DNA from: Gemmatimonadota bacterium
GTDB lineage: Bacteria; Gemmatimonadota; Gemmatimonadetes; Gemmatimonadales; GWC2-71-9
Length of the DNA stretch: 56,279 nucleotides
Assembly (NCBI GenBank): GCA_024641735.1
Contig: JAHECN010000003.1
Coordinates: forward strand, 1-56,279
Direction of reading: 5' to 3'
Shown: positions 30,810 through 47,359 of the stretch, in pieces
Layout of the letters: the number at the start of each line of letters is the position of its first letter
How positions within the stretch are numbered: the first letter of the stretch is position 1
Made by a program: the position numbers and the translations under genes
Notes under the pieces: model-generated
Seen by the model: the letters and a program-made list of their open reading frames with translations, nothing else
Databases searched by the model: none
What the model was told of the DNA's origin: nothing

Positions 30810-31274
30810 CTATTCCGCGGAGGTCACTCCGAAGCATTCGGTAATGGCCCGGGTGCGGAAGTCAAAGATCGCGCGCAGTTGATGGCGGACGACGAGCCAG
30901 TGTGCCAGCCGACCGAGTGCACCGAACGGGAGGCGATACTGGACCGTGTCGGTCATCTCCACCCCACCCACGACACTCCGGAAGCTATGTGTGTGGTACC
31001 ACTCGGCGTAGGGACCCGCGAGCTGCTCATCCGCGAAGTGCGAATTCTCAACGTACTCCGTGATCCGCGAGCGCCAGCGCATCGGGATGCCGAGCAGCCC
31101 AATGCGATACTGAATTTCGGTGCCTTCCCGGACTTCGGTGTCGGTCGTCCCGAGAATCTTGAAGCCCAGCCATGGTGGGGTCAGCCTGGCCAGGTTCGAC
31201 GGATTCTTGAAGAAGGCGAAGACCTCCGGGAGCTCCCCGCGGAGCACCGTGGTGCGACGAAGTTCGTAGATCAT
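30810..31274 (-). CDS. SRPBCC-family ligand-binding protein
   Basis: A 154-aa START/SRPBCC-like protein with the start YELRRTTVLRGELPEVFAFF, followed by NPSNLARLTPPWLGF. These are typical of the helix-grip fold that binds hydrophobic ligands. Its ATG overlaps the stop of the CarH-like regulator by four bases, so the two form one transcript. In many organisms similar proteins sit beside light-responsive LitR/CarH genes. The ligand is unknown. Confidence 0.82.
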   Translation of the reverse strand: MIYELRRTTVLRGELPEVFAFFKNPSNLARLTPPWLGFKILGTTDTEVREGTEIQYRIGLLGIPMRWRSRITEYVENSHFADEQLAGPYAEWYHTHSFRSVVGGVEMTDTVQYRLPFGALGRLAHWLVVRHQLRAIFDFRTRAITECFGVTSAE

Positions 31275-32218
31275 CGACGTTCCACCTGGGCCAACACGCG
31301 TCGGAGTTCGGCCAACGAACCGCAGACGGAAATGCCCGGCCGGTGCAAGAGATCAGAGCTTTTCGGGATCCCGGCACCACCGAGGATGATGGCGAGAGAG
31401 GCCGGGAGCGCGGTGCGGAGGGAGAGCACATCCTTGGTCACGTGCCCCATATCTCCTGGTGCGACCACGCTCAGCGCGACCGCGCGCGCACCGACGCTTT
31501 GGGCCGCCTCGACCAAGTCGTGCGCAGGGACGTCTGCTCCCAGATAGGTCACGGCCCAGCCATCCAGTGCCGCGATTCCAGCGACGAGGGCCGCACCGAC
31601 GCTGTGGAGTTCGCTGGACGGGGTTGCCACGAGCACACGTGGCGCGCCGGACGACGGACGGAGGGAGCGAGCGGCGTCAAGAACCACGCCGATGACGATG
31701 GCCGAGGCGAGGTGCTCCTGCGCGATCGTCATCTTGCCGCCAACCCATTGCTCGCCGACCTGATGCATCAGGTGGGGGATGAAGTCTTCCAGGCACTCCG
31801 CCGTCCCGAGCCGGGCGAAGGCGCGGCGGAGGAGTGCTTCGAATGCGACGCCATCAAGGGCGCGTATACTCGCGAGCGCCTCCTCGGTCCAGCCGTCTGC
31901 CGCGAGCGGTAGCGGAGCGGGTGCGGGGATGGCCGCGTCGTCCTCCGCCACCAAGCGGAGCAACTCCTCCATGGAACAGCCTGCCACCAGACTGATGTTC
32001 CGGCCATGCTGGGTCGCTGCCGCGAGGAGCCGAAATCGCTCGATGTCCTCGTCGCTGTAGAGCCGCTGTCCCCCTTCGCTTCGTGAAGGCGCCACCGCGT
32101 TATAGCGCCGCTCCCAGGCTCGCAGGACGTCTCGGGAGAGACCCGTACGCTCGGCGACAATCGCGATGGGGTGCCCCGGGAGGGGGGTGGCGTGCTGGTG
32201 CCCTGAAGGGTTCGACAT
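31271..32218 (-). CDS. carH: B12-dependent photoreceptor/MerR-type repressor (CarH/LitR)
   Basis: A 315-aa regulator. Residues 17-85 form a MerR helix-turn-helix (AIVAERTGLSRDVLRAWERRY). Residues of about 110-185 are a four-helix bundle and 190-310 a Rossmann cobalamin-binding domain. Key CarH residues are present: Trp158, then Glu168-His169 ten residues later (the light-sensing cap), and ExHxxG at 203-208 with His205 as the lower cobalt ligand. In known CarH proteins adenosylcobalamin drives tetramer formation and DNA binding in the dark, and light breaks it. It is divergent from the fasciclin gene, with candidate operators between them. ATG 32218 is used; nine residues could precede it. Confidence 0.92.
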   Translation of the reverse strand: MSNPSGHQHATPLPGHPIAIVAERTGLSRDVLRAWERRYNAVAPSRSEGGQRLYSDEDIERFRLLAAATQHGRNISLVAGCSMEELLRLVAEDDAAIPAPAPLPLAADGWTEEALASIRALDGVAFEALLRRAFARLGTAECLEDFIPHLMHQVGEQWVGGKMTIAQEHLASAIVIGVVLDAARSLRPSSGAPRVLVATPSSELHSVGAALVAGIAALDGWAVTYLGADVPAHDLVEAAQSVGARAVALSVVAPGDMGHVTKDVLSLRTALPASLAIILGGAGIPKSSDLLHRPGISVCGSLAELRRVLAQVERR

Positions 32219-32262
32219 GAGACGAAGATAGTTGTCGTCCAAGTTTCGTCAAGGCAGGTACT

Positions 32263-32284
32263 TAGACAAAGGCTTGACAAAGGA
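32263..32284 (+). promoter_or_regulatory. Candidate CarH operator: 11-bp direct repeat pair, upstream
   Basis: TAGACAAAGGC (32263-32273) is followed at once by TTGACAAAGGA (32274-32284). The second copy includes the -35 hexamer of the fasciclin promoter. CarH from Thermus binds tandem 11-bp repeats, so the spacing fits. Binding here is inferred. Confidence 0.6.
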
Positions 32285-32302
32285 CCCATTGTGTCGTAGA
32301 AT
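32274..32302 (+). promoter_or_regulatory. σ70-type promoter for the fasciclin gene
   Basis: A perfect -35 box TTGACA (32274-32279) and a -10 box TAGAAT (32297-32302) are separated by 17 bases. Transcription would begin near 32309, giving a leader of about 43 bases before the fasciclin ATG. The -35 box lies inside a candidate operator repeat. Confidence 0.75.
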
Positions 32303-32314
32303 ACTCGCTCGAGC

Positions 32315-32336
32315 TGGACAAACTCTAGACAACGAA
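32315..32336 (+). promoter_or_regulatory. Candidate CarH operator: 11-bp direct repeat pair, downstream
   Basis: TGGACAAACTC (32315-32325) is followed by TAGACAACGAA (32326-32336). Both share TnGACAA with the upstream pair and the same 11-base period. The pair lies just after the expected transcription start, so a bound repressor could block promoter escape. Confidence 0.55.
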
Positions 32337-32899: not shown

Positions 32900-33364
32900 T
32901 CAACCGCGATTCAGTTTCCAGATCGCAAAGTTGAGGCAGGTCGCGAAGGAGACCCACGCGAGATAGGGGAGCAGCAGCATCCCCGCGCGCCGATCGATCC
33001 CCCAGAAAGCCCAGATCGTCGCCCCGATGGCGAGCCACAGGACCACGATATCCATCAAGGCGAGATCCGGGCGCTCCAACCCAAAGAAGAGCCAAGACCA
33101 CGCCGCGTTCAGCGCGAGCTGCACCAGGAAGAGCGTCAGCGCGTGCCGGACTCCGGTGGCCCCGGTGGACTTCCAGATCATCCAGGCCGACACCGCCATC
33201 ATGACGTAGAGCGCCGTCCAGACCGGCCCGAAGATCCAGTTCGGCGGGTTCCAACTCGGCTTCGTGAGACCGGCATACCACGCGCCGGGCATGAACTGCG
33301 CGCCGATTGCAGCCGCGAGAAAGGTCACGGCAAGCCACCCCACCAATCCGAGCCACGTCTTCAT
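32900..33364 (-). CDS. tspO: TspO/MBR-family membrane protein
   Basis: A 154-aa protein with five membrane helices. The signatures WYAGLTKPSWNPPNWIFGPVW and the C-terminal WVSFATCLNFAIWKLN match TspO (tryptophan-rich sensory protein), which binds porphyrins and is linked to light and oxidative stress. It starts at ATG 33364, sharing a base with the stop of the DUF1003 gene. It converges on the fasciclin gene 29 bases away, and its place in a CarH neighbourhood fits a photo-stress role. Confidence 0.94.
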   Translation of the reverse strand: MKTWLGLVGWLAVTFLAAAIGAQFMPGAWYAGLTKPSWNPPNWIFGPVWTALYVMMAVSAWMIWKSTGATGVRHALTLFLVQLALNAAWSWLFFGLERPDLALMDIVVLWLAIGATIWAFWGIDRRAGMLLLPYLAWVSFATCLNFAIWKLNRG

Positions 33365-33921
33365 CACGACATTCCTCCCGGGTGCTTCGCCACCAAGAGC
33401 TCGAGCATCTTGGCCTGGGTTTCCTGCATCTCCACAATTCGTGTCAACTCTTGGGTGCGCAAGAGGTCGATCTTCTCGTGGATCTGCATGATTTCGATTT
33501 CAGCCTTCAAGTTGACCTCATAGTCATGCGTCGCCTGTTGCCGATCGGTATCCGCTTGACGACTCTGGCTCATGAGAATGATGGGAGCCTGCACCGATGC
33601 GAGGCAGGAGAGGACCAGGTTGAGGAGGATGAAGGGGTACGGGTCATAGGGGTGTTGCAGGGCATAGCTGTTGAGTCCCATCCACCCGATGAGGATGGTG
33701 AAGAAGATCCCCATGAAGGCCCAGCTCCCCCCGAAGCGCGCGACGCGATCGGCGACCCGTTGGCCGAGGGTCAACTCGGCATCGATCTCTCCCTGAATTG
33801 GGCGGCTGACGTGCATGCGCGAGATGACCGAGCGGAGGATCTCCTGCTCGCGTTCGGTGAGTTTTTCCCAAGTCCTGCGGAAGTGTTTGGTTGCAAGCGC
33901 GGCGGCTTCCTTCGAGTTCAC
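33364..33921 (-). CDS. DUF1003 membrane protein
   Basis: A 185-aa protein with a cytoplasmic N-terminal part. The DUF1003 core has two membrane helices: GGSWAFMGIFFTILIGWMGL, then DPYPFILLNLVLSCLASVQAP. A C-terminal coiled coil follows. Function is unknown for the family. It lies between NUDIX and tspO in a leftward run, translationally coupled to tspO. Confidence 0.9.
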   Translation of the reverse strand: MNSKEAAALATKHFRRTWEKLTEREQEILRSVISRMHVSRPIQGEIDAELTLGQRVADRVARFGGSWAFMGIFFTILIGWMGLNSYALQHPYDPYPFILLNLVLSCLASVQAPIILMSQSRQADTDRQQATHDYEVNLKAEIEIMQIHEKIDLLRTQELTRIVEMQETQAKMLELLVAKHPGGMS

Positions 33922-36163: not shown

Positions 36164-37159
36164 TCAGGTGAGTACGGTCACCTGAGCCGAGCGAGCCAAG
36201 TGACGGACCATCTGCTCCGCCGCGAGTTGATCCATTCCGAAGGAAGCCGTGGCCGCCGCATCCGCGTCGATACACCGATCGGTCTGCACGGTCACGCTGT
36301 GCCACGGTCCCGTCCGCGGGACCGCCGTGGCCGGATCCATCAAGTGATGGAACCGCCGCCCCTGCCAGTCAAAGAACTGGGCATAGTCGCCTGACGTGGC
36401 CACCGCCTGATCGGAGACTTCCAACGTCAGCGCGACGGTCTCTTCCGTGTGGGGGGAGCGAATGCCGACACGCCAGGGTTCGCCGTCGGGCGCATGCCCG
36501 AGGGCGTAGAGATCGCCGCCGACATTGACGATCGCGTGCGCCACCCCACGGTCGCGCAGACGCTGCACCGCAACGTCCACCCCGTATCCCTTGGCGATGC
36601 CACCGAGATCGAGTCGCACATCGCGCTCGGTGAACCGGACCATGTTGCCGCGACTGGTGGGCGCCACATCGACATGACGCCAGAAGCCGCGCCCCGCGAG
36701 TGGGCGCACTAGCGCCTCGGCCGGTGGCGCATGGTGGTGCGCGACATCCCAAAGCTCTACTACCGAACCGATCCCCGGGTCGAACCGTCCGTCGGTGGCC
36801 TCGGCCCACCGCAACGCAGTGGCGATCACGCTCGCCGTGGCCGCCGAGATCGGCACACCATCACGTGCAGCAGCTGCGTTGGCCCGGCCAATGTCGGAGG
36901 TGGTACGGAACCGGGTCATCGACCATTCGACGCGGCGCAACGCATCCATCGCGGCGTCAAGCGCATCCTGCGCAGCACGTTCATCGTGATGGACCACGGT
37001 CAGGTCCGCGATCGTCCCCATCACGGGCATGCTGCGCCGAGCAACAACCTGATGCCGACGCAACGCGAGGGGGAGCGATGCCACGACGAAGGCACCCACG
37101 CCAAGTCCCAGAAAATGTCGACGGGTGAGCCGTCCGGTGTCGCGCCTGTCATTGGTCAT
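36164..37159 (-). CDS. apbE: FAD:protein FMN transferase, Tat-exported
   Basis: A 331-aa ApbE that attaches FMN by a phosphoester bond to Thr in RnfG and RnfD. A twin-arginine signal (TRRHFLGLGVGAFVVASLP) precedes the domain. Family blocks RSMPVMGT, LDLGGIAKGYGVD, VNVGGDLYALG and HHLMDPATA are present, as is the metal-binding Asp near the C-terminus. It starts 11 bases inside the small Cys-rich gene at the end of the rnf cluster, which fits maturation of that complex in the periplasm. Confidence 0.95.
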   Translation of the reverse strand: MTNDRRDTGRLTRRHFLGLGVGAFVVASLPLALRRHQVVARRSMPVMGTIADLTVVHHDERAAQDALDAAMDALRRVEWSMTRFRTTSDIGRANAAAARDGVPISAATASVIATALRWAEATDGRFDPGIGSVVELWDVAHHHAPPAEALVRPLAGRGFWRHVDVAPTSRGNMVRFTERDVRLDLGGIAKGYGVDVAVQRLRDRGVAHAIVNVGGDLYALGHAPDGEPWRVGIRSPHTEETVALTLEVSDQAVATSGDYAQFFDWQGRRFHHLMDPATAVPRTGPWHSVTVQTDRCIDADAAATASFGMDQLAAEQMVRHLARSAQVTVLT

Positions 37160-37295
37160 CGTGATGCTCCCCCGTGTAGTGCGAACAACTGTTGCTGCAT
37201 CCCCCGCAGTGGCCGCCGCATCCTCGTTGTCGGACCAGCCCAAAGAGCGCGAAGAGCAGCGCCGTCGTCCCGATCGCCAGAATGGTCGACATCAT
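37149..37295 (-). CDS. 48-aa Cys-rich membrane protein, possible Rnf maturation factor
   Basis: One hydrophobic helix (ILAIGTTALLFALFGLV) is followed by a basic patch and the cluster C26-x3-C30-x2-C33-x3-C37, then a His/Asp-rich tail. Its ATG overlaps the rnfA stop by four bases, and it overlaps apbE by 11, so it is translated with the Rnf genes. The layout resembles NqrM, the small Cys-rich protein needed to place iron in the NqrD/NqrE centre, and also FeoB-associated Cys-rich proteins. A role in building the RnfA/RnfE [2Fe-2S] site is a reasoned guess. Confidence 0.7.
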   Translation of the reverse strand: MMSTILAIGTTALLFALFGLVRQRGCGGHCGGCSNSCSHYTGEHHDDQ

Positions 37296-37867
37296 CCCGC
37301 TCCCAGGCCGGCGAAGCCCATGAACGCCAGGGCGAGGCACGACGCGATGATCAGCGAGAGGCCGAAGCCTTGCGCGGCAGATGGAACATCCGCCAGATCG
37401 AGCCGCTCGCGGATCGATGCCATCAAGGCGAGTGCGAGCGTCAGGCCGAGGCCGGCGCCCACAGCAAACGCGAGACCCTGCCACAAGTCATAGCCACGAT
37501 TGGTCTGGAAAATGGCCAGCCCGAAGATCGCGCAGTTGGTGGTGATCAATGGCAGGTAGATGCCCAATGCCCGGAAGAGCGTCGGACTGAGCTTCTTGAT
37601 GGCCATTTCTACGATCTGGACCAGCGACGCGATCACGATGATGAACGAGATGATCCGCAAGTACGGTGCGTTGGCGAGAATGAACCGATTGAGGAACCAG
37701 ACCGATGTCGAGGTGATGACCATCACGAAGACATTCGCCGTACCGAGTCGGAGCGCAGTCTCCGTCTTGCTCGTGACCCCGAAGAAGGGGCAGAGCCCAA
37801 GGAATAGCGTCAACGTGAAGTTGTTGATCAGCAGCGCGGAGAGGAGAATCCAAGTCAGATCGCTCAC
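37292..37867 (-). CDS. rnfA: Rnf complex subunit RnfA
   Basis: A 191-aa protein with six membrane helices. FLGLCPFFGV near the start and LITTNCAIFG in the middle hold the two Cys that, with those of RnfE, bind the intramembrane [2Fe-2S] cluster. This passes electrons across the membrane between the flavins. GTG 37867 overlaps the rnfE stop (GTGA). Confidence 0.96.
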   Translation of the reverse strand: MSDLTWILLSALLINNFTLTLFLGLCPFFGVTSKTETALRLGTANVFVMVITSTSVWFLNRFILANAPYLRIISFIIVIASLVQIVEMAIKKLSPTLFRALGIYLPLITTNCAIFGLAIFQTNRGYDLWQGLAFAVGAGLGLTLALALMASIRERLDLADVPSAAQGFGLSLIIASCLALAFMGFAGLGAG

Positions 37868-38499
37868 GCGGCACCTTCCCCGTTCGCTCGGCCCGTGGAG
37901 CGCTTGGCATGCCATCCGAGCACCAGCATCACCACGCCGAGCGTCAGAAAGCCCCCCGGCGGGAGCACCATGATCACCCACGGTTCGAATCGCGGCCCGA
38001 GAAGATCGATCCCGAGGAGGGCGCCCGTCCCGAGCAGTTCCCGCACGGCACTCAAGAGCACCAAGACCAGCGTGAATCCCGCGGCCGTCCCGAGCGCGTC
38101 CAACAGCGAACGCTTCACCGATTGGCGTGACGCGAACGCCTCAGCGCGGCCAAGAATGATGCAGTTCACCACGATGAGGGCCACAAACGGGCCAAGCTGC
38201 TTGTGGACGACCGGCACCGCGGCTTCCAGCAGCATGTCGGCGATCGTGACGAAGGTGGCAATGATCAGCACGTAGGAGGTGATCCGCACCTCGTGCGGAA
38301 TCCATTTCTTGAGGGAGGAGACCAGCAGGTTGGATCCCAGCAACACAAAGGCCGTGGCCATCGCCATGGCCAAGCCGTTCGCCACCGAATTGGTCACGGC
38401 CAATGTCGGGCAGAGCCCGAGCATCTGGACCACGACTGGATTCTCCCGCCACACACCGCGCAAGAAGTCGTCGAACGTTGCCGGCACTTGATCGCTCAC
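37864..38499 (-). CDS. rnfE: Rnf complex subunit RnfE
   Basis: A 211-aa membrane protein paralogous to RnfA with inverted topology. The Cys ligands appear in MLGLCPTLAV and VVNCIILGRAEAFA. The GTG at 38499 overlaps the rnfG stop. A longer in-frame reading upstream lies over rnfG and is not real. It contributes two ligands to the shared [2Fe-2S] site. Confidence 0.96.
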   Translation of the reverse strand: MSDQVPATFDDFLRGVWRENPVVVQMLGLCPTLAVTNSVANGLAMAMATAFVLLGSNLLVSSLKKWIPHEVRITSYVLIIATFVTIADMLLEAAVPVVHKQLGPFVALIVVNCIILGRAEAFASRQSVKRSLLDALGTAAGFTLVLVLLSAVRELLGTGALLGIDLLGPRFEPWVIMVLPPGGFLTLGVVMLVLGWHAKRSTGRANGEGAA

Positions 38500-39161
38500 G
38501 GGGTCCCTCCCCGCAGGTACGCCTGCAGGAGCGGCTGCCATCGGCTCGTGGCGTTGTTGATGATGTTCACCACGGTGCGCGACGAAATGGTGGCGCCGGT
38601 GATGGTCTGCAGGTCGTTCGGTGTACTTGGGGCACTCTTCACACCGCGCAACGGAGTCGCCGGGCCGTCGAAGCGCGAGGTGAATGGCGTCTTCTCGATC
38701 TTGTCGCCGAGGCCCGGTGTTTCCTTGTGCGCGAGGACCTTCATGCCCAGCAATGTGCCGCGGGTCGGTTCGAGGCCGAAGATGAGGCTGATCACGTCGG
38801 AGAACCCTGGTTCTCCAGCGGTGACTGCGGCGCCGATCACGCTGTCCGAGGCCGTGTAGCCGAGGAAGACGCGCTCCAACTGACGCCGATCGGCTCCTGC
38901 CGACGGCGTCTTGGTGAGCACACCACCTTCCAAGTAGAGCGTGTCCCATCGTGCGGGCGCCTTCAGAACTTCGCGTACCGCACTTTCGACCAGTTCCGCG
39001 CGATGCGCCTCAATGCGTGGCAACGTCGCGCTGTACACCGTCACGATCAGTCCACCGGCGAGCGCGCCCGCAAATCCGAGCGTCGCCAACAGCCGCCAAG
39101 ACGGGACGGCGGGTGCGGGTTCCATCTCGGGAGGTGCGCCGTGCGCGTGACCTGCACTCAT
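38496..39161 (-). CDS. rnfG: Rnf complex subunit RnfG (FMN-binding)
   Basis: A 221-aa subunit with one N-terminal membrane helix (about 24-46) and a periplasmic FMN-binding domain. The attachment motif is at 185-191 (QTITGAT) with Thr191 as the expected phosphoester-FMN site; the position usually taken by Asp is Gln185. KETPGLGDKIE is another conserved block. ATG 39161 overlaps the rnfD stop by four bases. Confidence 0.95.
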   Translation of the reverse strand: MSAGHAHGAPPEMEPAPAVPSWRLLATLGFAGALAGGLIVTVYSATLPRIEAHRAELVESAVREVLKAPARWDTLYLEGGVLTKTPSAGADRRQLERVFLGYTASDSVIGAAVTAGEPGFSDVISLIFGLEPTRGTLLGMKVLAHKETPGLGDKIEKTPFTSRFDGPATPLRGVKSAPSTPNDLQTITGATISSRTVVNIINNATSRWQPLLQAYLRGGTP

Positions 39162-40150
39162 CCGGGCACCCTCCGGCGCGTCCCGAAGACGCGCGGTTGG
39201 GTCATTCGGTTGATGAAGGGCACCAGTGCATTCATCAAGAGGATCGCATACATCACGCCTTCCGGGAGTCCGCCCCAGAGTCGGATCACCACGACAAGTA
39301 CACCGATCCCGGCACCGAAGATCCATCGTCCCGTGTTGGTGACTGGTGAGGTCACCATGTCCGTTGCCATGTAGACCGCGCCGAGCATCAGGCCACCGGA
39401 GAAGAGCATGAACCAGGCGTCAGGATGCGTCGGGTCGACCGTGTGCATCACGGTGGCGAGGAGGGCGGTGCTCAACAGGACACTCACCGGAATGCGCCAG
39501 TTGAGATAGCCGCGCCACGCCAGGTACGCTCCACCCGCAAGGATGACCAACGCCGCCGTTTCGCCGAGCGAGCCACCGGTGGTGCCGAGGATCAATTCCC
39601 GGAGTGGGGTGAGGGTGCCCTCAAATTTGTGCAGCCCCAGCGGGGTTGCCTCGGTGAGCGCGTCCGTCTGGGCGCTGGTGAATGGGAACGCGAAGGTGTC
39701 GCCGCGGAGGGTCCAGAAACTCTGACCGGCTGCGGGCCATGTCGTGATGGCAACCGGGAAGGCCGCCTGCAAGAAGGCCCGCCCGATCAATGCCGGGTTG
39801 AAGACATTCTGCCCGAGGCCGCCAAAGACCAGTTTGCCGAAGCCGACGCCGAAGATCCCGCCCAGCACGGCCATCCAGAGTGGCAGCCCCGCCGGTAGGC
39901 AGAGCCCGAGGAGGATGCCCGTGATCACCGCAGAACCGTCGCCGAGGGTGTCGCCCCGCCCGAAGCCGCGTTCCGTCACCAGGGCACCGATCGTGGTGGC
40001 CGCAATGACCAGCAGGGCGCTGATGCCGAAACTGAAGCCCGCGACGGCGATCACCGGGAGCAGGCTCAGCACGACATGCCACATGATCCGCGGGGTGGAG
40101 TCGCGATCCTTGAGGTGCGGCGAGGCCGTGACGACGAGTGGAGTACTCAT
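39158..40150 (-). CDS. rnfD: Rnf complex subunit RnfD
   Basis: A 330-aa membrane protein with about nine helices. It carries a covalent FMN site in DALTEATPL (163-171, Thr169) and probably riboflavin. Conserved blocks include VFNPALIGRAFL and YMATDMVTSPVT. It forms part of the ion pathway of the complex. The ATG is at 40150, overlapping the rnfC stop (ATGA). Confidence 0.96.
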   Translation of the reverse strand: MSTPLVVTASPHLKDRDSTPRIMWHVVLSLLPVIAVAGFSFGISALLVIAATTIGALVTERGFGRGDTLGDGSAVITGILLGLCLPAGLPLWMAVLGGIFGVGFGKLVFGGLGQNVFNPALIGRAFLQAAFPVAITTWPAAGQSFWTLRGDTFAFPFTSAQTDALTEATPLGLHKFEGTLTPLRELILGTTGGSLGETAALVILAGGAYLAWRGYLNWRIPVSVLLSTALLATVMHTVDPTHPDAWFMLFSGGLMLGAVYMATDMVTSPVTNTGRWIFGAGIGVLVVVIRLWGGLPEGVMYAILLMNALVPFINRMTQPRVFGTRRRVPG

Positions 40151-41475
40151 GGGGCGCTCGCCTGTGCGCGGCGCAATCCGGCCTTGCTGACCTGGAAGAG
40201 CTGCGACAACGGGATATTGGAAGGACAGACATAGGAGCAGGATCCGCAGAGCATGCAATCCGAAAGATGGGCGTCGGTCATCTCGTCATAGCGGCCGACC
40301 CGCGCGAGGTCTCCGAGGAGTGACGGGTTCAGGAAGACCGGGCAGGCATCGAGGCAGCGGCCGCAATGGATGCACGGATACACACGTTCCGTGCGCGTTT
40401 CCTGGCGGGCGAGGACCACGATGCCGGTGGTGCCCTTGGTGATCGGGGCGTCGAGGTTGGCCTGGGCGAGGCCCATCATCGGGCCACCGGCAATCACTTG
40501 GGCCGCATCGGCCGTGAGGCCGCCGCACTGATCAAGCAGGTCACGCAGCTTGGTGCCAACCGGCACGATCAGGTTGGCCGGACGGGTCAGCCCATGTCCC
40601 GTGACGGTGACGATCCGCTCAATCAGGGGAAGCCCGGTCTCGAACACTTCCGCAATTGCCGCGGCCGATCCGACATTCTGTACGACCACGCCAGCAGAGA
40701 CCGGAAGTTTTCCGGACGCGACCTCGTGGCCCGTCACCGCGTGGATCAGCATCTTCTCTGCGCCCTGCGGATACTTGACCGTGAGCGGCAGGATCGTGAT
40801 GTCGAGATCGGTCGGGATGGTCCGGGTCAGGGCCTCGATGGCGTCAGGCTTGTTCCGCTCTACGCCGATCACCGCTTTGGAAACGCCGAGCGTCTGCATC
40901 ATCACGCGAATGCCGAAATGCACCCGCTTGGGGTATTCCGCCATCGTGCGGTGATCGGAGGTGAGGTACGGCTCGCATTCCGCCCCATTGATGATCAGCG
41001 TATGGATCGGAAAATCCTTGGGTGGCGCCAGTTTGACGTGGGTCGGGAAGCCGGCCCCACCGAGGCCAACGACGCCGGCATCTTGCACCGCCTGGACCAC
41101 CTCATCCACCGAGAGGCCTTCCCAGTGCGGAACCATCCGGGGGCGCGGGATCTGTGGTGCATAGGGGTCCACGAGAATCCGGACCGCCATTGCCATCGTG
41201 CCATCAGGATGCGGCCACCAGTCGACGTCCACGACCTTGCCGGCGGCGGAGGAGTGAATCGGCACGGAGATGTAGCCGTCGGCCTCTCCCACCTTGTCGC
41301 CGCGCTCGACCCGGTCGCCCACCTTGACGCAGAGTGTCGCCGGCTTCCCGGCGTGTTGCCGGAGCGGGAGGACGATCTCCTTGGGGTACGCCATCCGCCG
41401 GATCGGAAGCTGTGCCGTCAGCTCCTTCGATTCCGGCGGATGCACGCCGTGCGCGAACCCGGAAGTGAACCACAT
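40147..41475 (-). CDS. rnfC: Rnf complex subunit RnfC (NADH-binding)
   Basis: A 442-aa peripheral subunit that holds the NAD site and FMN. VGLGGAGFPTHVKL and LIINGAECEPYLTSDH are the family FMN/NADH-binding blocks. Two [4Fe-4S] motifs follow: CIHCGRCLDACP and CMLCGSCSYVCP. The N-terminal barrel (GVHPPESKELT) is present, and there is no long C-terminal repeat extension. ATG 41475 is shared with the nifJ stop (TGATG), showing that nifJ and rnfC are translated as a pair. Confidence 0.96.
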   Translation of the reverse strand: MWFTSGFAHGVHPPESKELTAQLPIRRMAYPKEIVLPLRQHAGKPATLCVKVGDRVERGDKVGEADGYISVPIHSSAAGKVVDVDWWPHPDGTMAMAVRILVDPYAPQIPRPRMVPHWEGLSVDEVVQAVQDAGVVGLGGAGFPTHVKLAPPKDFPIHTLIINGAECEPYLTSDHRTMAEYPKRVHFGIRVMMQTLGVSKAVIGVERNKPDAIEALTRTIPTDLDITILPLTVKYPQGAEKMLIHAVTGHEVASGKLPVSAGVVVQNVGSAAAIAEVFETGLPLIERIVTVTGHGLTRPANLIVPVGTKLRDLLDQCGGLTADAAQVIAGGPMMGLAQANLDAPITKGTTGIVVLARQETRTERVYPCIHCGRCLDACPVFLNPSLLGDLARVGRYDEMTDAHLSDCMLCGSCSYVCPSNIPLSQLFQVSKAGLRRAQASAP

Positions 41476-44400
41476 CAGTTGAACTTCTCCGCCCGCGCGA
41501 CCCACTTTGCCAGGTCCTTCTCCTTCGGATTCAACGGCGTGCCGGGATGGATCAGCGCCACCGGGCAGCGTTCTGCCGCCAGCACCAACTGCTGGAAGGT
41601 GCCGGCCGTTGCATCCTTGATGTAGGCCTGCTTCACGTCGTTGTAGGCGAACATCCGGCTGTTGAGGTTGGTGCACTCGTTGCACGTGGTGCAGTTGGCG
41701 GAATCGATGTACGCCTCAAGGGTGAGGGGTGCGTCGTCCCCGGCCTCAGGCGCAACCGGAGCGGCCGTCGGTGTGGCAACGGGAGCCGATGCCGCCGGTT
41801 CTGGGGCGCTGGGTGGTGTGGCGGCCACGGGTGTCGGAGCAACTGCAGCCTCTGCTATGCCGTGGCCATTGCCAGAGGATGCCGTGGCCGCCGAGGCCGG
41901 CAATGTTGCCAGGAGGTCGGCGATCACGGCACCACCGCCTTGCTTCATCAATCCTTCGACGAGTCGCTTGGCGATTTCCCGTGGATAGTTGGCGCGCATC
42001 GCTGCGAGTGACGCATCGAACTCGGCGCGCAACGTGGCCTCGCGCTGGGCGTACGCGGTGTCCAGATCTCGTGCGACGAGATCGCGAACACTCTCCGACA
42101 CTTCGACGCCCGCGAGCTGCCGCAACTGCGACCAGTACTCGAGTCGCTCCTGCGCCAGAGTTGCCATCGCTGGTGCCACACGCATCCGGCGCAACCGGCG
42201 TTCCCGGGTCACCCCATGAATGAATGCCACCTTCCCCTCACGTTCGTCGAACGGGATGGTGATGTACTCATGGAATGGCACCATCGCATCGTCCCACTGT
42301 TCGGGCGGTACTTCCGTGAAGTGCTGCTTGAATCGCGTCTCAGTGGCCGCCCAATCCGCGATGGTCAGCGGTAACGTCATGGTCTGTTCGGCGCCGTCTT
42401 CGTCGACATACGCGAGGGAGTACTCGGGCCAATCGGTGTCGACTGACGGGTTGCCATCCAGGCTCATGCAGTCGGCGAAGGACGGGCCCCCATCGGGGTC
42501 ATAGCTGAAGAACGGGAAGGCCCGGCTCTCCAACGAGAGGCGCGCCGCGTGCTGTGCCCAGTCGTCGGCGAGGCCGTGCTCCACCGGGCATGGCGTGTAG
42601 ATGTTGAAGATCGCCGGGCGCCGCTTCTGAAGGCCCTTGAGCACGCCGCTGAGCAGGTGGGACGCCGCTGCCTGCGAGGATTGGTGGACGAAGACCCCGC
42701 GGTGTGCGATCGCCAGCAGGCCGAGTTCCTTGCGCACTTCGGTCTTGCCGGACTGCGCCTTGCCGAAGGCCGACATGTCGGCGACCTGTCCCGTGAACCC
42801 GCTGGTGCACGCCTGTCCACCGGTATTGGAATAGACCTGTGTGTCGAGGACGACGACCCGGATCGGCTTTCCGGAGGCGAGGAGTCGTGAGAGGTTCTGG
42901 AAGCCGATGTCGAGCATCGCCCCGTCGCCGCCCATCGCGACAATCGGAGGGCAGAGATGGAATTCGTCATCCGTGAGCTGCTGCCAATCGAGGCGATTGA
43001 GCTCCGGTTCCATCGTGGCCGCGTCATAGCTCCCCTCGGCCAACGCGCGTGCGCGCCGAATGGCGATGAAGCCGTCGGTCATCTTCCGCATGTGCGCTTC
43101 GAAGAGGCCGATCGCGATCGATGGCGAATCCTGGAAGAGGTGGTTCACCCATGGGAAGGGGTACGGGTTGTACGGGTACGTGCTTCCCCAGACGGAGGAA
43201 CAGCCCGTCGAGTTGGCCATACCCAGCGACGCGCGTCCCTTGCCACTCGGTCCCTTGACGTAACGCCACTGCAGGTCCGTGATGGCGCGAAGCGATTCGT
43301 TGAGCAGTGCCAGTTCGGCGCGCTTGGCGTCCGCCATCGGGACTGCGACGGAATCTTTCGAGGCCTCCGCCGCAGCCAGGTCCACACCTGAGGCCACCAG
43401 CGCGCGGGCCTTGGCGTCGAGTGTGGCAATCAGGTCGTCGAGTTCACGAACCTGCGCGGCGACGCGCGGGGCCATCATCGCGTGAATCGCCGACACAATC
43501 AGGTGGACGGTCGTCTTCTCACCGCACCCCATGCAGGCGCCGTCGCCGCCGACCATCGAGCGGTAGGTCTCCTTCTTGAGCAACATCGAGGAGAGAACGC
43601 CAATCCCCTCGCTCATGTCGGCAATGTTGATGAATCGATCATTGGTGTCCGGAAGGTGCTGCCAGACGGCCCAGTTGCGACGCAGTTCCGCGAGGTTGGC
43701 GTCGTCCTGCTTGACGGTGATCAGCGCACCATCCGGGCAGACCTCCACACAGAGGTTGCATCCTTTGCACGCTTCCGGATTGACCGTGATCGACAGCAGG
43801 CCACCACCACCCTTGGACTTCGACTCGTGGGTGTCGAAGAAGGGCCGGGTCCGTGCCAGCGGGAACTCGGCCAATTGGCTCTGAATCACGGCGTGTTCCA
43901 CATCCGTGGCGGCACGACGCTCTGCGTCCCACGACATCTTGGCGGCCACCGCCTGATATCCCTGCGCGAAGGCGTCGGAGACGCTCAGGCTGGAATCCTT
44001 GCCGAGGAGGGTGTGGGTTTCACGCGCCCAGTGCTTGACGATCGGTCGCACCTTCCCGAACGTTGCGCCGTTCGTGGTGCTCCGAATCACCGCGTCGATG
44101 ACTTCTTCGGCGCTGTTCACGACGCCGGGGATCGCCGAGTCGGGACACTGGACCCAGCACTGCGAGCAGCCGGTGCACTTGTCGGCGATGAACGCCGGGA
44201 CCTCAAGGCGCACACCGCTCATGTCTCGCACGCTGCTGGTCACCGCGGGAATGGCGCTGATCGCAGCAAAGGGGTCGGCGATCCCGTCCTCGCCGAGGGT
44301 GCACATGGAGCAGACCTGCTCCCAAAAACGCCCCTCATGCCCGATGCCCTCAGCGGCATCATTGGCGGACATCAGGACCGGCATCTGGGGGACTTCCCCG

Positions 44401-46529
44401 CGCTCGTCGGGGATCTCCGTGCTGGACCCGATCACTTCGTGGAGCTCGTCGTAGCCGCGACGGATGACGCGCAGGTTGTCCTGGACCACCTGGTCGCCAC
44501 GATGCCCGAACTTCTTGGTGAGCTGCTTGGTAATGCCCTTGAAGAGCGCTTCTTCCGACACGCCTTCCTTTTCGCGCAGCGGTGAGGTGCGGAAGAAGGC
44601 GCCCATGAAGGCGGCACCCTGCATCCGGTACCGCAGCTCAGCGTCCGAGGCCTCGCTCATCGCGATCGCGAACGCGTCCAGCACATAGAGGCGGATCTTG
44701 CGATCGATGATCGTGCGGCGCGCCTTGGCCGGCAGCGTCTGCCAGAATTCGTCCGGCGGAAGATCGGACTGGATGACAAAGACGCCATGGTCCGCGAGCC
44801 CGGCGAGCGGGTCACTGTGCCGGAACACATTGGGGTCGGGCGACAGCACGACATCCACGTACTTGAGCTCACAGTTGAGCCGAAGCGGTTCGTGCGCGAG
44901 CACGGCGTAGAAGGTCGTCGGCTGCCCCTTCTTCTCGGAGCCGTACTTCGGATTGGCCTTCACCTGGAGGCCGAAGAGCTCGAACGCCGTCATCGCAACA
45001 TTCTTGCCCATGGTGATGGCACCCCAGCCACCGACCGAATGGATGCGCAGCGCGGTTGAACTTGCCGGAAGCATGTTGACCGGTGCCGCCGGTGTGAGCG
45101 ACAGCTCCGTCAGATGCGGGTAATGATCCACCAACTCTTCTTGCCAGATCTGGAGCTTCGGTGCCCGGGTCGCCTGACGGACGAAGTCGATGCCGAGATA
45201 GAACTGCCGCTGACGTCCGCCGTCCGGCAGCATGTTCTCGACGGCAGCGACGATGTCCCCCGGCTGCAAGTCACGACTGCCAAGGCCGAAGCAACCGCTG
45301 AAGAAGTCGGGCACCTGTTCCGGTCGGAGCGGGCGAACGCCAGCGTGGGCATCCGGAGAGCGGGAATTCTCCACGCCCTGTGCCATCGCCGCGCGAATCT
45401 CCCGAAGCAACGGCGCGTCCACGGCGAGCGGTTGATCGACGCGCTCCAACACGGTGACGCCCTTCTTGCCGGCAAGGAGCGCCGTGAGGACGTCCGCCGG
45501 GAAGGGGCGGAACATGGTCAGGTGGACGACGCCGACTTTCAGCCCGCGAGTCGCCCGGAGATGGTCGGCCACGACTTCCGCGTTGGAGCAGACCGACCCC
45601 TGGCCGAGGATGACATACTCGGCGTCATCGAGGCGATACCCCATCGCTCGGGCGTAGCGCCGACCGGTCAACGCGGCGTACTCTGCAAAGGCGCGTTCCG
45701 ACAGCTCACGAATGTGATCGAAGTAGAAAGGCCGTTGCGCCGCCACGCCCTGTGCGTAGCTGTCCTGATTCTGCACCGTCCCCAGCATGGCCGGGTAGTC
45801 GAGGTCAAACATCTCCGGGATCCGCCGACGCGTGGCACCGAACACCATGCGTTGGGCGGGAGTCGGGGAGTCGATCAGGTCGCTCGGATCCCCGAGGTAC
45901 TCCTTGATCAAGGCAGGCTCGGGAAGGCGCAGCGACTCGATGACGTGACTGGTGAGAAAGCCATCCTGGGCCACCAGCCCGGGATTCAGCGACAACTCAG
46001 CGATGCGGTGTGCGATCAACGTGAGATCCGCGGTCTCCTGCACATCCTTGGCAAAGAGCTGGAAGAATCCGGTATCGTCGACGGCGTGATAGTCATCGTG
46101 CCCGGCGTGCACGTTCAGCGCGTGCTTGGTCATGGCGCGCGCGGCGACGTTGAGCACGTAGGTCAGGCGCTTGCCGACCGCCGCGTAGAGCGACTCGTGC
46201 ATGTACGCGATACCCTGACCGCTCGAGAAGTTGGTCGAACGGAGCCCTGCCATGCTCATGCCCGCGGTGACCGCGGCGGCAGCATGTTCGCCTTCCGGCT
46301 CGAAGAAGAGCAGGCGTCGGCCGAACACGTTTGGGGTGCCCTCGGCGACAGCCGCCGCCCATCCCTCACCCATCTGCGTGGATGGCGTGATCGGATAGGC
46401 GCCGGCGGCTTCGCTGGCGCCGGTCTCCATCGCGACGACCGCGGAACTGCCGTCGAGCGCCACCAGTTTGCCGGGGTACTTCACGGTGGCCGCCTGGGGG
46501 ACCGCGGCTTCCTTCGTCTTGAAAAACAT
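41475..46529 (-). CDS. nifJ: Pyruvate:ferredoxin oxidoreductase, very long, with C-terminal ferredoxin-like domain
   Basis: A 1684-aa homodimeric-type PFOR; usual length is about 1200. It oxidises pyruvate with CoA to acetyl-CoA and CO2 and reduces ferredoxin. In order, it has a pyrimidine-binding domain (AYPITPSTQMGEGWA), a γ domain (GGWGAITMGKNVA), two [4Fe-4S] motifs (CTGCSQCWVQCP and CKGCNLCVEVCP) and a TPP domain (GDGACMGCGEKT, MGGDGAMLDIG). After the core comes a helical stretch, a Pro/Ala-rich linker (about 1544-1605) and a cluster motif Cys1613-x2-Cys-x2-Cys-x35-Cys1655-Pro. The gene shares single bases with rnfB and rnfC, so it is an integral part of the rnf operon. Confidence 0.95.
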   Translation of the reverse strand: MFFKTKEAAVPQAATVKYPGKLVALDGSSAVVAMETGASEAAGAYPITPSTQMGEGWAAAVAEGTPNVFGRRLLFFEPEGEHAAAAVTAGMSMAGLRSTNFSSGQGIAYMHESLYAAVGKRLTYVLNVAARAMTKHALNVHAGHDDYHAVDDTGFFQLFAKDVQETADLTLIAHRIAELSLNPGLVAQDGFLTSHVIESLRLPEPALIKEYLGDPSDLIDSPTPAQRMVFGATRRRIPEMFDLDYPAMLGTVQNQDSYAQGVAAQRPFYFDHIRELSERAFAEYAALTGRRYARAMGYRLDDAEYVILGQGSVCSNAEVVADHLRATRGLKVGVVHLTMFRPFPADVLTALLAGKKGVTVLERVDQPLAVDAPLLREIRAAMAQGVENSRSPDAHAGVRPLRPEQVPDFFSGCFGLGSRDLQPGDIVAAVENMLPDGGRQRQFYLGIDFVRQATRAPKLQIWQEELVDHYPHLTELSLTPAAPVNMLPASSTALRIHSVGGWGAITMGKNVAMTAFELFGLQVKANPKYGSEKKGQPTTFYAVLAHEPLRLNCELKYVDVVLSPDPNVFRHSDPLAGLADHGVFVIQSDLPPDEFWQTLPAKARRTIIDRKIRLYVLDAFAIAMSEASDAELRYRMQGAAFMGAFFRTSPLREKEGVSEEALFKGITKQLTKKFGHRGDQVVQDNLRVIRRGYDELHEVIGSSTEIPDERGEVPQMPVLMSANDAAEGIGHEGRFWEQVCSMCTLGEDGIADPFAAISAIPAVTSSVRDMSGVRLEVPAFIADKCTGCSQCWVQCPDSAIPGVVNSAEEVIDAVIRSTTNGATFGKVRPIVKHWARETHTLLGKDSSLSVSDAFAQGYQAVAAKMSWDAERRAATDVEHAVIQSQLAEFPLARTRPFFDTHESKSKGGGGLLSITVNPEACKGCNLCVEVCPDGALITVKQDDANLAELRRNWAVWQHLPDTNDRFINIADMSEGIGVLSSMLLKKETYRSMVGGDGACMGCGEKTTVHLIVSAIHAMMAPRVAAQVRELDDLIATLDAKARALVASGVDLAAAEASKDSVAVPMADAKRAELALLNESLRAITDLQWRYVKGPSGKGRASLGMANSTGCSSVWGSTYPYNPYPFPWVNHLFQDSPSIAIGLFEAHMRKMTDGFIAIRRARALAEGSYDAATMEPELNRLDWQQLTDDEFHLCPPIVAMGGDGAMLDIGFQNLSRLLASGKPIRVVVLDTQVYSNTGGQACTSGFTGQVADMSAFGKAQSGKTEVRKELGLLAIAHRGVFVHQSSQAAASHLLSGVLKGLQKRRPAIFNIYTPCPVEHGLADDWAQHAARLSLESRAFPFFSYDPDGGPSFADCMSLDGNPSVDTDWPEYSLAYVDEDGAEQTMTLPLTIADWAATETRFKQHFTEVPPEQWDDAMVPFHEYITIPFDEREGKVAFIHGVTRERRLRRMRVAPAMATLAQERLEYWSQLRQLAGVEVSESVRDLVARDLDTAYAQREATLRAEFDASLAAMRANYPREIAKRLVEGLMKQGGGAVIADLLATLPASAATASSGNGHGIAEAAVAPTPVAATPPSAPEPAASAPVATPTAAPVAPEAGDDAPLTLEAYIDSANCTTCNECTNLNSRMFAYNDVKQAYIKDATAGTFQQLVLAAERCPVALIHPGTPLNPKEKDLAKWVARAEKFN

Positions 46530-47359
46530 TATGCTGCCTCCGAGACCGGTGCACGGGTGAACTGTGCGCCGGAGAGCCAAACGATTGCGTTGGTTGGACA
46601 TCGGGCGACGGCGCGGGCATCCGCGAGCGCCGCCAGTTCCTGATTCACGACTGCCACTCCGCTGGCGATGCTGATCAATCCCGGCTCCGCGTCCTGCACG
46701 CACTTGCCGCATGCGGTGCACGCGACCTCGCACTGGGAGAGGATGTCGTCACCGACCATCAGGTTCTTGCACTGCACCAGGAGTGGCTGATCGACGGGGA
46801 GAATGGTGAACAACGTCTTGGGGCATGCCTCCACGCAGTCGCCGCACGCGGTACAGGCCACGGGGTCGACAACCGGGATGCCGTGGGCATTCATGTGGAT
46901 CGCGCCGAAGTCGCAACTGCGCTCGCAGTCGGCGAGACCGAGGCAGCCCCAGGTGCAGCCCTTGCCGCCCCCAGCGACCGCGGCGGCGGCTCCACAGGTC
47001 GCCACGCCACGGTATTCCGCGCGTTGGATCGCCACGTCGGTGCCGCCGGCACAGAGCAGGCGGGCCACCCGTTTCACGGCGACGCCGGCGTCCACCCCGA
47101 GGTAGCCCGCGATCTGGTCGCGCGAGGCCTCGGTGGCCACCGAACATTGGGAGACTTGGATGGTCCCTGCGACTGCCGCCTCCGCGAACGAACGACAGCC
47201 GGGGAGGCCGCATGCACCGCAGTTCGCGCCGGGAAGAATCGACGTGACGACGCCGATGCGGGGGTCCTCCCACACGGTGAGATTGGCGTTGGCGAGTGCG
47301 ATCAGGATGCCGAACGCCAGCCCTACACCACCAAGAATCAGGATCGCGTCGAGCACCAT
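46529..47359 (-). CDS. rnfB: Rnf complex subunit RnfB (ferredoxin-oxidising)
   Basis: A 276-aa polyferredoxin anchored by one N-terminal helix. An N-terminal [4Fe-4S] motif Cys47-x2-Cys50-x4-Cys55-x16-Cys72 is intact. Further sets are 135/139/145/149 and 169/172/175/179, plus 214/217/220 paired with 254. The last set has VQDAEPG where a fourth Cys is normal, and the final motif keeps only one Cys, so one cluster seems to have been lost. RnfB receives electrons from ferredoxin, here probably from the adjacent PFOR. The nifJ ATG lies in its TAA stop. Confidence 0.94.
   Translation of the reverse strand: MVLDAILILGGVGLAFGILIALANANLTVWEDPRIGVVTSILPGANCGACGLPGCRSFAEAAVAGTIQVSQCSVATEASRDQIAGYLGVDAGVAVKRVARLLCAGGTDVAIQRAEYRGVATCGAAAAVAGGGKGCTWGCLGLADCERSCDFGAIHMNAHGIPVVDPVACTACGDCVEACPKTLFTILPVDQPLLVQCKNLMVGDDILSQCEVACTACGKCVQDAEPGLISIASGVAVVNQELAALADARAVARCPTNAIVWLSGAQFTRAPVSEAA

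What the first reader, a model, noticed from the sequence alone, without database searches (positions are those of the whole stretch)
32263..32336. Two pairs of 11-bp direct repeats on a strong promoter beside a CarH-type photoreceptor
Four TnGACAA copies occur in two tandem pairs with exact 11-bp spacing. One pair contains the -35 box (TTGACA, 17 bp, TAGAAT) and the other lies just after the transcription start. CarH is known to bind tandem 11-bp repeats, and the divergent gene encodes all cobalamin and light-sensing residues of CarH. This predicts light-induced fasciclin expression.
Basis: partly seen in the sequence, partly recalled or inferred. Interest (0 to 1): 0.75.

Follow-up and report, generated by a model that had tools for sequence, protein, structure and literature searches.

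The report
B12 light-sensor operator controlling a fasciclin
In a group of uncultured soil and water bacteria, a vitamin-B12-based light sensor appears to hold shut the gene for a secreted fasciclin protein in the dark, using six short DNA boxes laid out in a fixed pattern that also marks other light-protection genes; the bacterium studied here has no recognisable carotenoid pathway, which is what such sensors usually control.

Summary
The four repeats are real. TnGACAAnnnnTnGACAA occurs twice in the whole 2.75-Mb assembly, both times here, against 0 for the reversed control. The divergent gene encodes a class I CarH/LitR-type regulator carrying both defining cobalamin motifs.

A third pair, pointing at carH (32236-32252), completes a 44-bp dyad-symmetric unit: two inverted 11-bp direct-repeat pairs. 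The pair past the fasciclin start lies 52 bp on, about five helical turns.

Across 79 Gemmatimonadota and other carH upstream regions the same geometry recurs far above chance (same-strand spacings 11 and 42/43; divergent spacing 27). The core pattern was found in 26 of 34 genomes of the family with CarH and in 0 of 68 without. It also marks unlinked genes: fasciclins, fatty-acid desaturase, an outer-membrane barrel and photolyase. A second copy in this genome lies between a desaturase and a barrel gene. This genome has no detectable phytoene synthase.

Best reading: dark AdoCbl-CarH represses carH and fasciclin, and light releases both. DNA binding and light response are inferred, not measured. 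The fasciclin linkage and this operator layout seem undescribed: a new variant of a known kind.

The parts
31271..32218 (-). carH-like gene, 315 aa from ATG 32218: MerR-type DNA-binding domain, B12-binding four-helix bundle and B12-binding Rossmann domain
   Evidence: Pfam MerR_1, B12-binding_2, B12-binding; best PDB sequence hits T. thermophilus CarH 5c8d and LitR 3whp; predicted fold matches 5c8d at rank 1, E 9e-17
30810..31274 (-). SRPBCC (polyketide cyclase/dehydrase-like) gene whose start overlaps the carH stop by 4 bp; probable same operon; conserved downstream of carH in close relatives
   Evidence: Pfam PF03364; same place in L035-L038 and L059
32352..32870 (+). fasciclin (FAS1) gene, 172 aa with an N-terminal stretch that looks like a Sec signal peptide (by eye); divergent to carH
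   Evidence: Pfam PF02469, 1.9e-40; PDB hits include FAS1 domains and AstaP 8c18
32236..32241 (-). operator box M1 (TGGACG), near carH
   Evidence: 11 bp from M2, 27 bp from P1; geometry conserved
32247..32252 (-). operator box M2 (TTGACG); also the -35 of the carH promoter
32263..32268 (+). operator box P1 (TAGACA)
32274..32279 (+). operator box P2 (TTGACA); also the -35 of the fasciclin promoter
32315..32320 (+). operator box P3 (TGGACA), just past the inferred fasciclin start; 52 bp (about 5.0 turns) from P1
32326..32331 (+). operator box P4 (TAGACA), 11 bp after P3
32297..32302 (+). -10 of the fasciclin promoter (TAGAAT, spacer 17)
32225..32230 (-). -10 of the carH promoter (TATCTT, spacer 16), 6 bp before the carH ATG, so the mRNA is probably leaderless
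   Evidence: same layout in most of the other aligned loci
32236..32279 (.). 44-bp dyad-symmetric operator core: two inverted pairs of 11-bp direct repeats (M1, M2 and P1, P2)

Best explanation
The intergenic region is a bidirectional CarH operator. [quoted passage not shown] One dimer sits on the M pair and covers the carH -35; the other sits on the P1/P2 pair and covers the fasciclin -35. A further pair (P3/P4) on the same helical face, just past the fasciclin start, tightens repression of fasciclin. Light breaks the cobalt-carbon bond, CarH falls off, and carH with its SRPBCC partner and the secreted fasciclin protein are expressed as part of a photoprotection regulon. Shown by sequence: the boxes, promoters, conserved spacing, association with carH and recurrence at other genes. 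Inferred: protein-DNA binding, oligomeric state, repression, light release and the role of fasciclin.
For: The tight repeat occurs only here in the genome. In 79 carH upstream regions, same-strand TnnACA spacings of 11 (93 observed, 0.6 in shuffles) and 42/43 (52 against 1.0) and a divergent spacing of 27 (42 against 0.3) stand far above shuffles. In 31 loci with the full array the spacings are quantised: 26/27, 37 or 47 bp, and 32, 42-44 or 52-54 bp. The core pattern is in 26 of 34 genomes with CarH and 0 of 68 without, with no reversed-control hit. Unlinked sites lie at fasciclins (L135, L171), fatty-acid desaturases (own C182, L166, L169, L172), outer-membrane barrels (own C182, L166, L176), class II photolyase (L178, L179), a photolyase-related fragment (L175) and SDR-DUF2867 genes (L173, L176). 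The box matches the published CarH repeat nAnnTnnACAn (PMC8156234), including the A three bases before the T. CarH motifs are present. A PduO-type adenosyltransferase gene is present, so AdoCbl can be made from a corrinoid.
Against: No experiment. The light state of T. thermophilus CarH uses His132, which is Val159 here, and PMC10442372 reports that its H132A variant largely stays tetrameric in light; CtMerR with Arg there still monomerises (PMC11796333). Ser202 replaces the Gly of the GxxH signature. Both M boxes in the window are imperfect (ACG for ACA). Eight CarH-bearing genomes show no core match at 3 mismatches. Loci share ancestry, so the Fisher value overstates independence. The NCBIfam CarH equivalog model scores 125 bits, below its cut-off of 400.
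Confidence: 0.8

Rival explanations
1. The protein binds this operator but senses AdoCbl supply or redox/oxygen state rather than light; the regulon responds to cobalamin status.
For: The His132 position is Val159 and Gly is Ser202. CarH action depends on AdoCbl in any case, and the genome has an adenosyltransferase.
Against: Trp158, Glu168, His169 and His205 are invariant in 22 aligned homologues. Photolyase and photolyase-related genes in relatives carry the same operator, which points to light. CtMerR without that His still responds to light (PMC11796333).
Confidence: 0.12
2. The minus pair is only for carH autoregulation, and the P1-P4 pairs are a separate fasciclin operator; the 27-bp dyad is incidental to divergent promoters.
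For: M2 coincides with the carH -35.
Against: Unlinked fasciclin sites keep the inverted pair at the same distance although that side has TGGACA instead of TTGACA, no -10 and no clear gene (L135, L171).
Confidence: 0.15
3. CarH activates rather than represses, as classical MerR proteins do, by remodelling the promoter.
For: The DNA-binding domain is of the MerR family.
Against: The boxes cover the -35 and start region, promoter spacers are the normal 16-17 bp and not 19-20, and characterised CarH proteins repress by occlusion (PMC8156234).
Confidence: 0.04
4. The repeats are chance or duplicated -35 hexamers unrelated to CarH.
For: Two of the boxes are also -35 hexamers.
Against: Conserved spacing, carH association and zero control hits.
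Confidence: 0.01

Closest known systems
CarH of Thermus thermophilus (PDB 5c8d/5c8e) and Bacillus megaterium; class I LitR
   Same: Domain order, both cobalamin motifs, 11-bp boxes of type TnnACA with one covering the -35
   Different: Published operators are contiguous same-direction repeats (three for T. thermophilus, four for B. megaterium) at carotenoid genes (PMC9304148, PMC8156234). Here the core is two inverted pairs with a 10-bp gap plus a third pair 4-5 turns on, and the target is a fasciclin.
CarH/CarA operators of Myxococcales (PMC9304148)
   Same: Pairs or runs of 11-bp repeats at the promoter, and B12-dependent light control
   Different: Contiguous repeats and pseudorepeats at crt operons; no divergent fasciclin reported.
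Class II LitR of Pseudomonas (PmlR2, PMC9758184)
   Same: The light regulon includes photolyase, cryptochrome-like and short-chain dehydrogenase genes; multiple sites span the promoter and start
   Different: Class II retains only the four-helix bundle, is thought unable to bind B12 and works with a LOV protein; its sites are TGTACA-N12-TGTACA.
Light- or stress-induced FAS1 proteins: algal AstaP, Synechocystis P74615 (PMC10147662), Azospirillum fasciclin (Dubey 2021, cited in PMC10949492)
   Same: Secreted FAS1 proteins linked to photooxidative stress or high light
   Different: None is reported there under CarH control; carotenoid binding of the window protein is untested and the host lacks detectable phytoene synthase.

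Membership tests
CarH / class I LitR photoreceptor | MerR-type DNA-binding domain followed by four-helix bundle and B12-binding Rossmann domain | tested here: met
   Pfam MerR_1, B12-binding_2, B12-binding; predicted fold best match 5c8d
CarH / class I LitR photoreceptor | Wx9EH motif capping the adenosyl group | tested here: met
   W158-x9-E168-H169; invariant in 22 homologues
CarH / class I LitR photoreceptor | ExHx2Gx41SxV/Tx22-27GG with lower axial His | tested here: met
   E203-L-H205-S-V-G208, S250-V-V252, G280 G281 (motif from PMC8156234)
CarH / class I LitR photoreceptor | Four-element light signature GxxW, EH, GxxH, GxxxP (PMC11796333) | tested here: inconclusive
   Three of four exact; GxxH reads SELH (Ser202), and the position varies in relatives
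CarH / class I LitR photoreceptor | Light-state upper His ligand (TtCarH His132); not a defining feature of the family, listed because it bears on light release | tested here: not met
   Val159 here; variable among relatives (7 of 22 have His). Also absent in CtMerR, which still responds to light (PMC11796333)
CarH / class I LitR photoreceptor | AdoCbl-dependent, light-sensitive oligomerisation and DNA binding | not testable with these tools
   needs purified protein
NCBIfam equivalog NF052513 (HTH-type transcriptional repressor CarH) | score above the curated cut-off | tested here: not met
   125 bits against cut-off 400, still the best model hit; a CarH-type homologue, not a member of this narrow curated equivalog
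CarH operator of published type | 11-bp direct repeats with TnnACA overlapping the promoter | tested here: met
   P1-P4 all TnnACA; the M boxes are TnnACG pseudorepeats
CarH operator of published type | Three or more contiguous same-direction repeats | tested here: not met
   Pairs only; pair-to-pair distance 52 (42/43 in most relatives) is not a multiple of 11, and one pair is inverted
FAS1 / fasciclin | FAS1 domain | tested here: met
   PF02469, 1.9e-40, residues 46-168

The most novel reading that the evidence does not exclude
A CarH lineage centred on Gemmatimonadota binds as a tetramer to a dyad-symmetric operator made of two inverted pairs of direct repeats, with a third pair held on the same helical face 4 or 5 turns away for tighter repression of fasciclin. 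In organisms such as this one without carotenoid synthesis, it runs a membrane- and envelope-centred photoprotection regulon in which a secreted FAS1 protein is the main light-induced product.
Probability: 0.45. Interest if true: 0.75.

Novelty: new variant of a known kind. Interest (0 to 1): 0.62.

Why it matters
It extends B12-based light sensing to a phylum where searches of the open literature found no report of it. It links CarH to fasciclin and lipid/envelope genes instead of carotenoids, and it offers an operator geometry that would explain how a dimer-of-dimers CarH could use all four DNA-binding domains, whereas only three bind in the T. thermophilus complex. The quantised spacing makes direct phasing tests possible and suggests a natural bidirectional green-light switch.

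Tried and rejected
A single-sequence scan of genome contigs found no relatives; an alignment query did. Reading P1-P4 as one contiguous repeat array was rejected because 42/52 is not a multiple of 11. A B12 riboswitch in the leader was not found. A link to carotenoid genes in this genome was rejected: no phytoene synthase, and 11 of the 34 CarH-bearing genomes lack a PF00494 hit. A class II photolyase in this genome was not found. Treating the M pair as autoregulation only is disfavoured by the unlinked fasciclin sites. The helical period could not be fixed to one value from the spacings, because the extra-turn variants are few and come mostly from one clade. Papers linking CarH or LitR to fasciclin were not found in the held library.

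Full report
Observation. In the window the tight double motif occurs twice against 0.01 in shuffles. In the whole 2.75-Mb, 96% complete assembly it again occurs twice, only here, with no hit for the reversed control. The promoter TTGACA-17-TAGAAT is the best in the region. A second promoter, TTGACG-16-TATCTT, faces carH, with the carH ATG six bases after its -10. A carH mRNA starting at or near its own ATG would be leaderless; most of the 31 aligned loci share the layout.

The proteins. The divergent gene (31271-32218) has MerR, B12-binding_2 and B12-binding domains, and its nearest solved relatives are T. thermophilus CarH and LitR. Its predicted fold (mean pLDDT 88.9) matches 5c8d first. Both motifs said to define CarH homologues (PMC8156234) are present. 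Two details differ from TtCarH: Val159 stands where His132 is, and Ser202 replaces Gly in the GxxH signature of PMC11796333; both positions vary among the relatives. His132 matters for tetramer disassembly in TtCarH (PMC10442372), but CtMerR, with Arg there, still monomerises in light (PMC11796333). Light sensing is therefore likely but not certain. The target gene is a single FAS1 domain protein whose N-terminus looks like a signal peptide (read by eye). An SRPBCC gene overlaps the carH stop by 4 bp.

A third pair. On the minus strand, TGGACG (32241-32236) and TTGACG (32252-32247) form another 11-bp pair. Together with P1/P2 it makes a 44-bp unit with exact two-fold layout: box starts at 0 and 11 (minus strand) and 27 and 38 (plus strand).

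Conservation. An alignment query gave 80 named carH loci, mostly Gemmatimonadota metagenome assemblies. Counting the window, 44 of 78 loci with enough upstream sequence have a divergent adjacent fasciclin. In 79 nonredundant upstream regions the TnnACA boxes show same-strand spacings of 11 (93 observed, 0.6 in shuffles), 42 (32 against 0.5) and 43 (20 against 0.5), and a divergent spacing of 27 (42 against 0.3). Scoring all six boxes gave 31 loci with a full or near-full array. The M-to-P1 distance was 27 in 23, 26 in 6, 37 in 1 and 47 in 1. The P1-to-P3 distance was 42 in 16, 43 in 8, 44 in 1, 52-54 in 5 and 32 in 1. The five long ones are the window and four of its closest homologues, so this is probably one event. 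Differences of about one helical turn suggest that the face of the helix is kept; the data do not fix the period. The derived box, with A three bases before the T, matches the published nAnnTnnACAn (PMC8156234). Selection maximised a score over spacings, so the unselected histogram is the primary evidence.

Genome-wide specificity. The core pattern with up to 3 mismatches was found in 26 of 102 genomes of the family. All 26 are among the 34 with a strong CarH homologue; none of the 68 others has one; and the reversed control found nothing. Fisher p is 1.4e-17, overstated because genomes are related and many hits are carH loci themselves. The unlinked hits are therefore the stronger test. In this genome a second site (C182:15220-15262, spacing 26) lies between a fatty-acid desaturase with the same start layout as carH and an outer-membrane barrel gene; the same desaturase/barrel pair carries it in a congener (L166). 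Elsewhere it precedes unlinked fasciclins (L135, L171), desaturases (L169, L172), a barrel and an SDR-DUF2867 gene (L176), an SDR and an SRPBCC gene (L173), a class II photolyase (L178, L179) and a photolyase-related fragment (L175). For some two-sided sites which gene is controlled is not settled.

Two architectural points. The P3/P4 pair appears at fasciclin promoters, linked and unlinked, and at DUF378 promoters beside carH (for example L125), but not at the desaturase, barrel, SDR or photolyase sites examined. The unlinked fasciclin sites keep the inverted M pair although that side has no TTGACA, no -10 and no clear gene, so the inverted pair looks like part of the operator and not merely a carH promoter element.

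Mechanism. Characterised CarH proteins form AdoCbl tetramers, dimers of head-to-tail dimers, that occlude promoters in the dark and fall apart in light (PMC8156234; PMC8221060). The simplest fit here is one tetramer on the 44-bp core, each dimer on one pair, covering both -35 elements, with extra CarH on P3/P4 at the fasciclin start. This step is inference. Release by light would induce carH-SRPBCC and fasciclin. The genome has a PduO-type adenosyltransferase. It has no PF00494 phytoene/squalene synthase, nor do 10 other CarH-bearing family genomes, so carotenoids are not the common target. FAS1 proteins are tied to high light or photooxidative stress in Synechocystis and algae (PMC10147662) and in Azospirillum (Dubey 2021, cited in PMC10949492), which makes the target plausible.

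Known or new. Published CarH operators are contiguous same-direction repeats at carotenoid genes (PMC9304148). No paper joining CarH or LitR to fasciclin was found in the held open-access library, which lacks most subscription journals. I rate it a new variant of a known kind. Limits: metagenome assemblies, shared ancestry, no wet data, and possible missing genes.

Noticed in passing
window 32225-32218 and the carH loci: The carH start codon lies about 6 bp after the -10 in most loci, suggesting a conserved leaderless carH mRNA; the desaturase gene at the second site in this genome has the same layout.
   Followed up: partly
G000 contig C182, locus L131 1427-1562: A second operator copy in this genome, between a fatty-acid desaturase and an outer-membrane beta-barrel gene; the same gene pair carries it in a congener (L166).
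   Followed up: yes
window 32900-33367 (-): A TspO/MBR gene converges on fasciclin; in the related locus L038 a TspO homologue lies downstream of carH instead.
   Followed up: no
L035 6421-6819, L038 6415-6816, L172 2128-2661: DUF2177 membrane proteins sit in carH operons or beside unlinked operators; L053, L050 and L089 have DUF378 genes divergent to carH.
   Followed up: partly
L175 2091-2342: A photolyase-related (DPRP) reading frame under an operator is cut short after 83 aa; possibly a frameshift in the assembly.
   Followed up: no
window 36164-41685 and 41475-46733 (-): Reading frames that look, by eye, like an ApbE-type gene, an Rnf electron-transport cluster and a 1752-aa pyruvate:ferredoxin oxidoreductase-like protein with extra ferredoxin-like cysteines near its C-terminus.
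   Followed up: no
L109, L112 (Verrucomicrobia loci): Divergent fasciclin with paired boxes but different spacings (29 and 34 bp), so the exact geometry may be lineage-specific.
   Followed up: no
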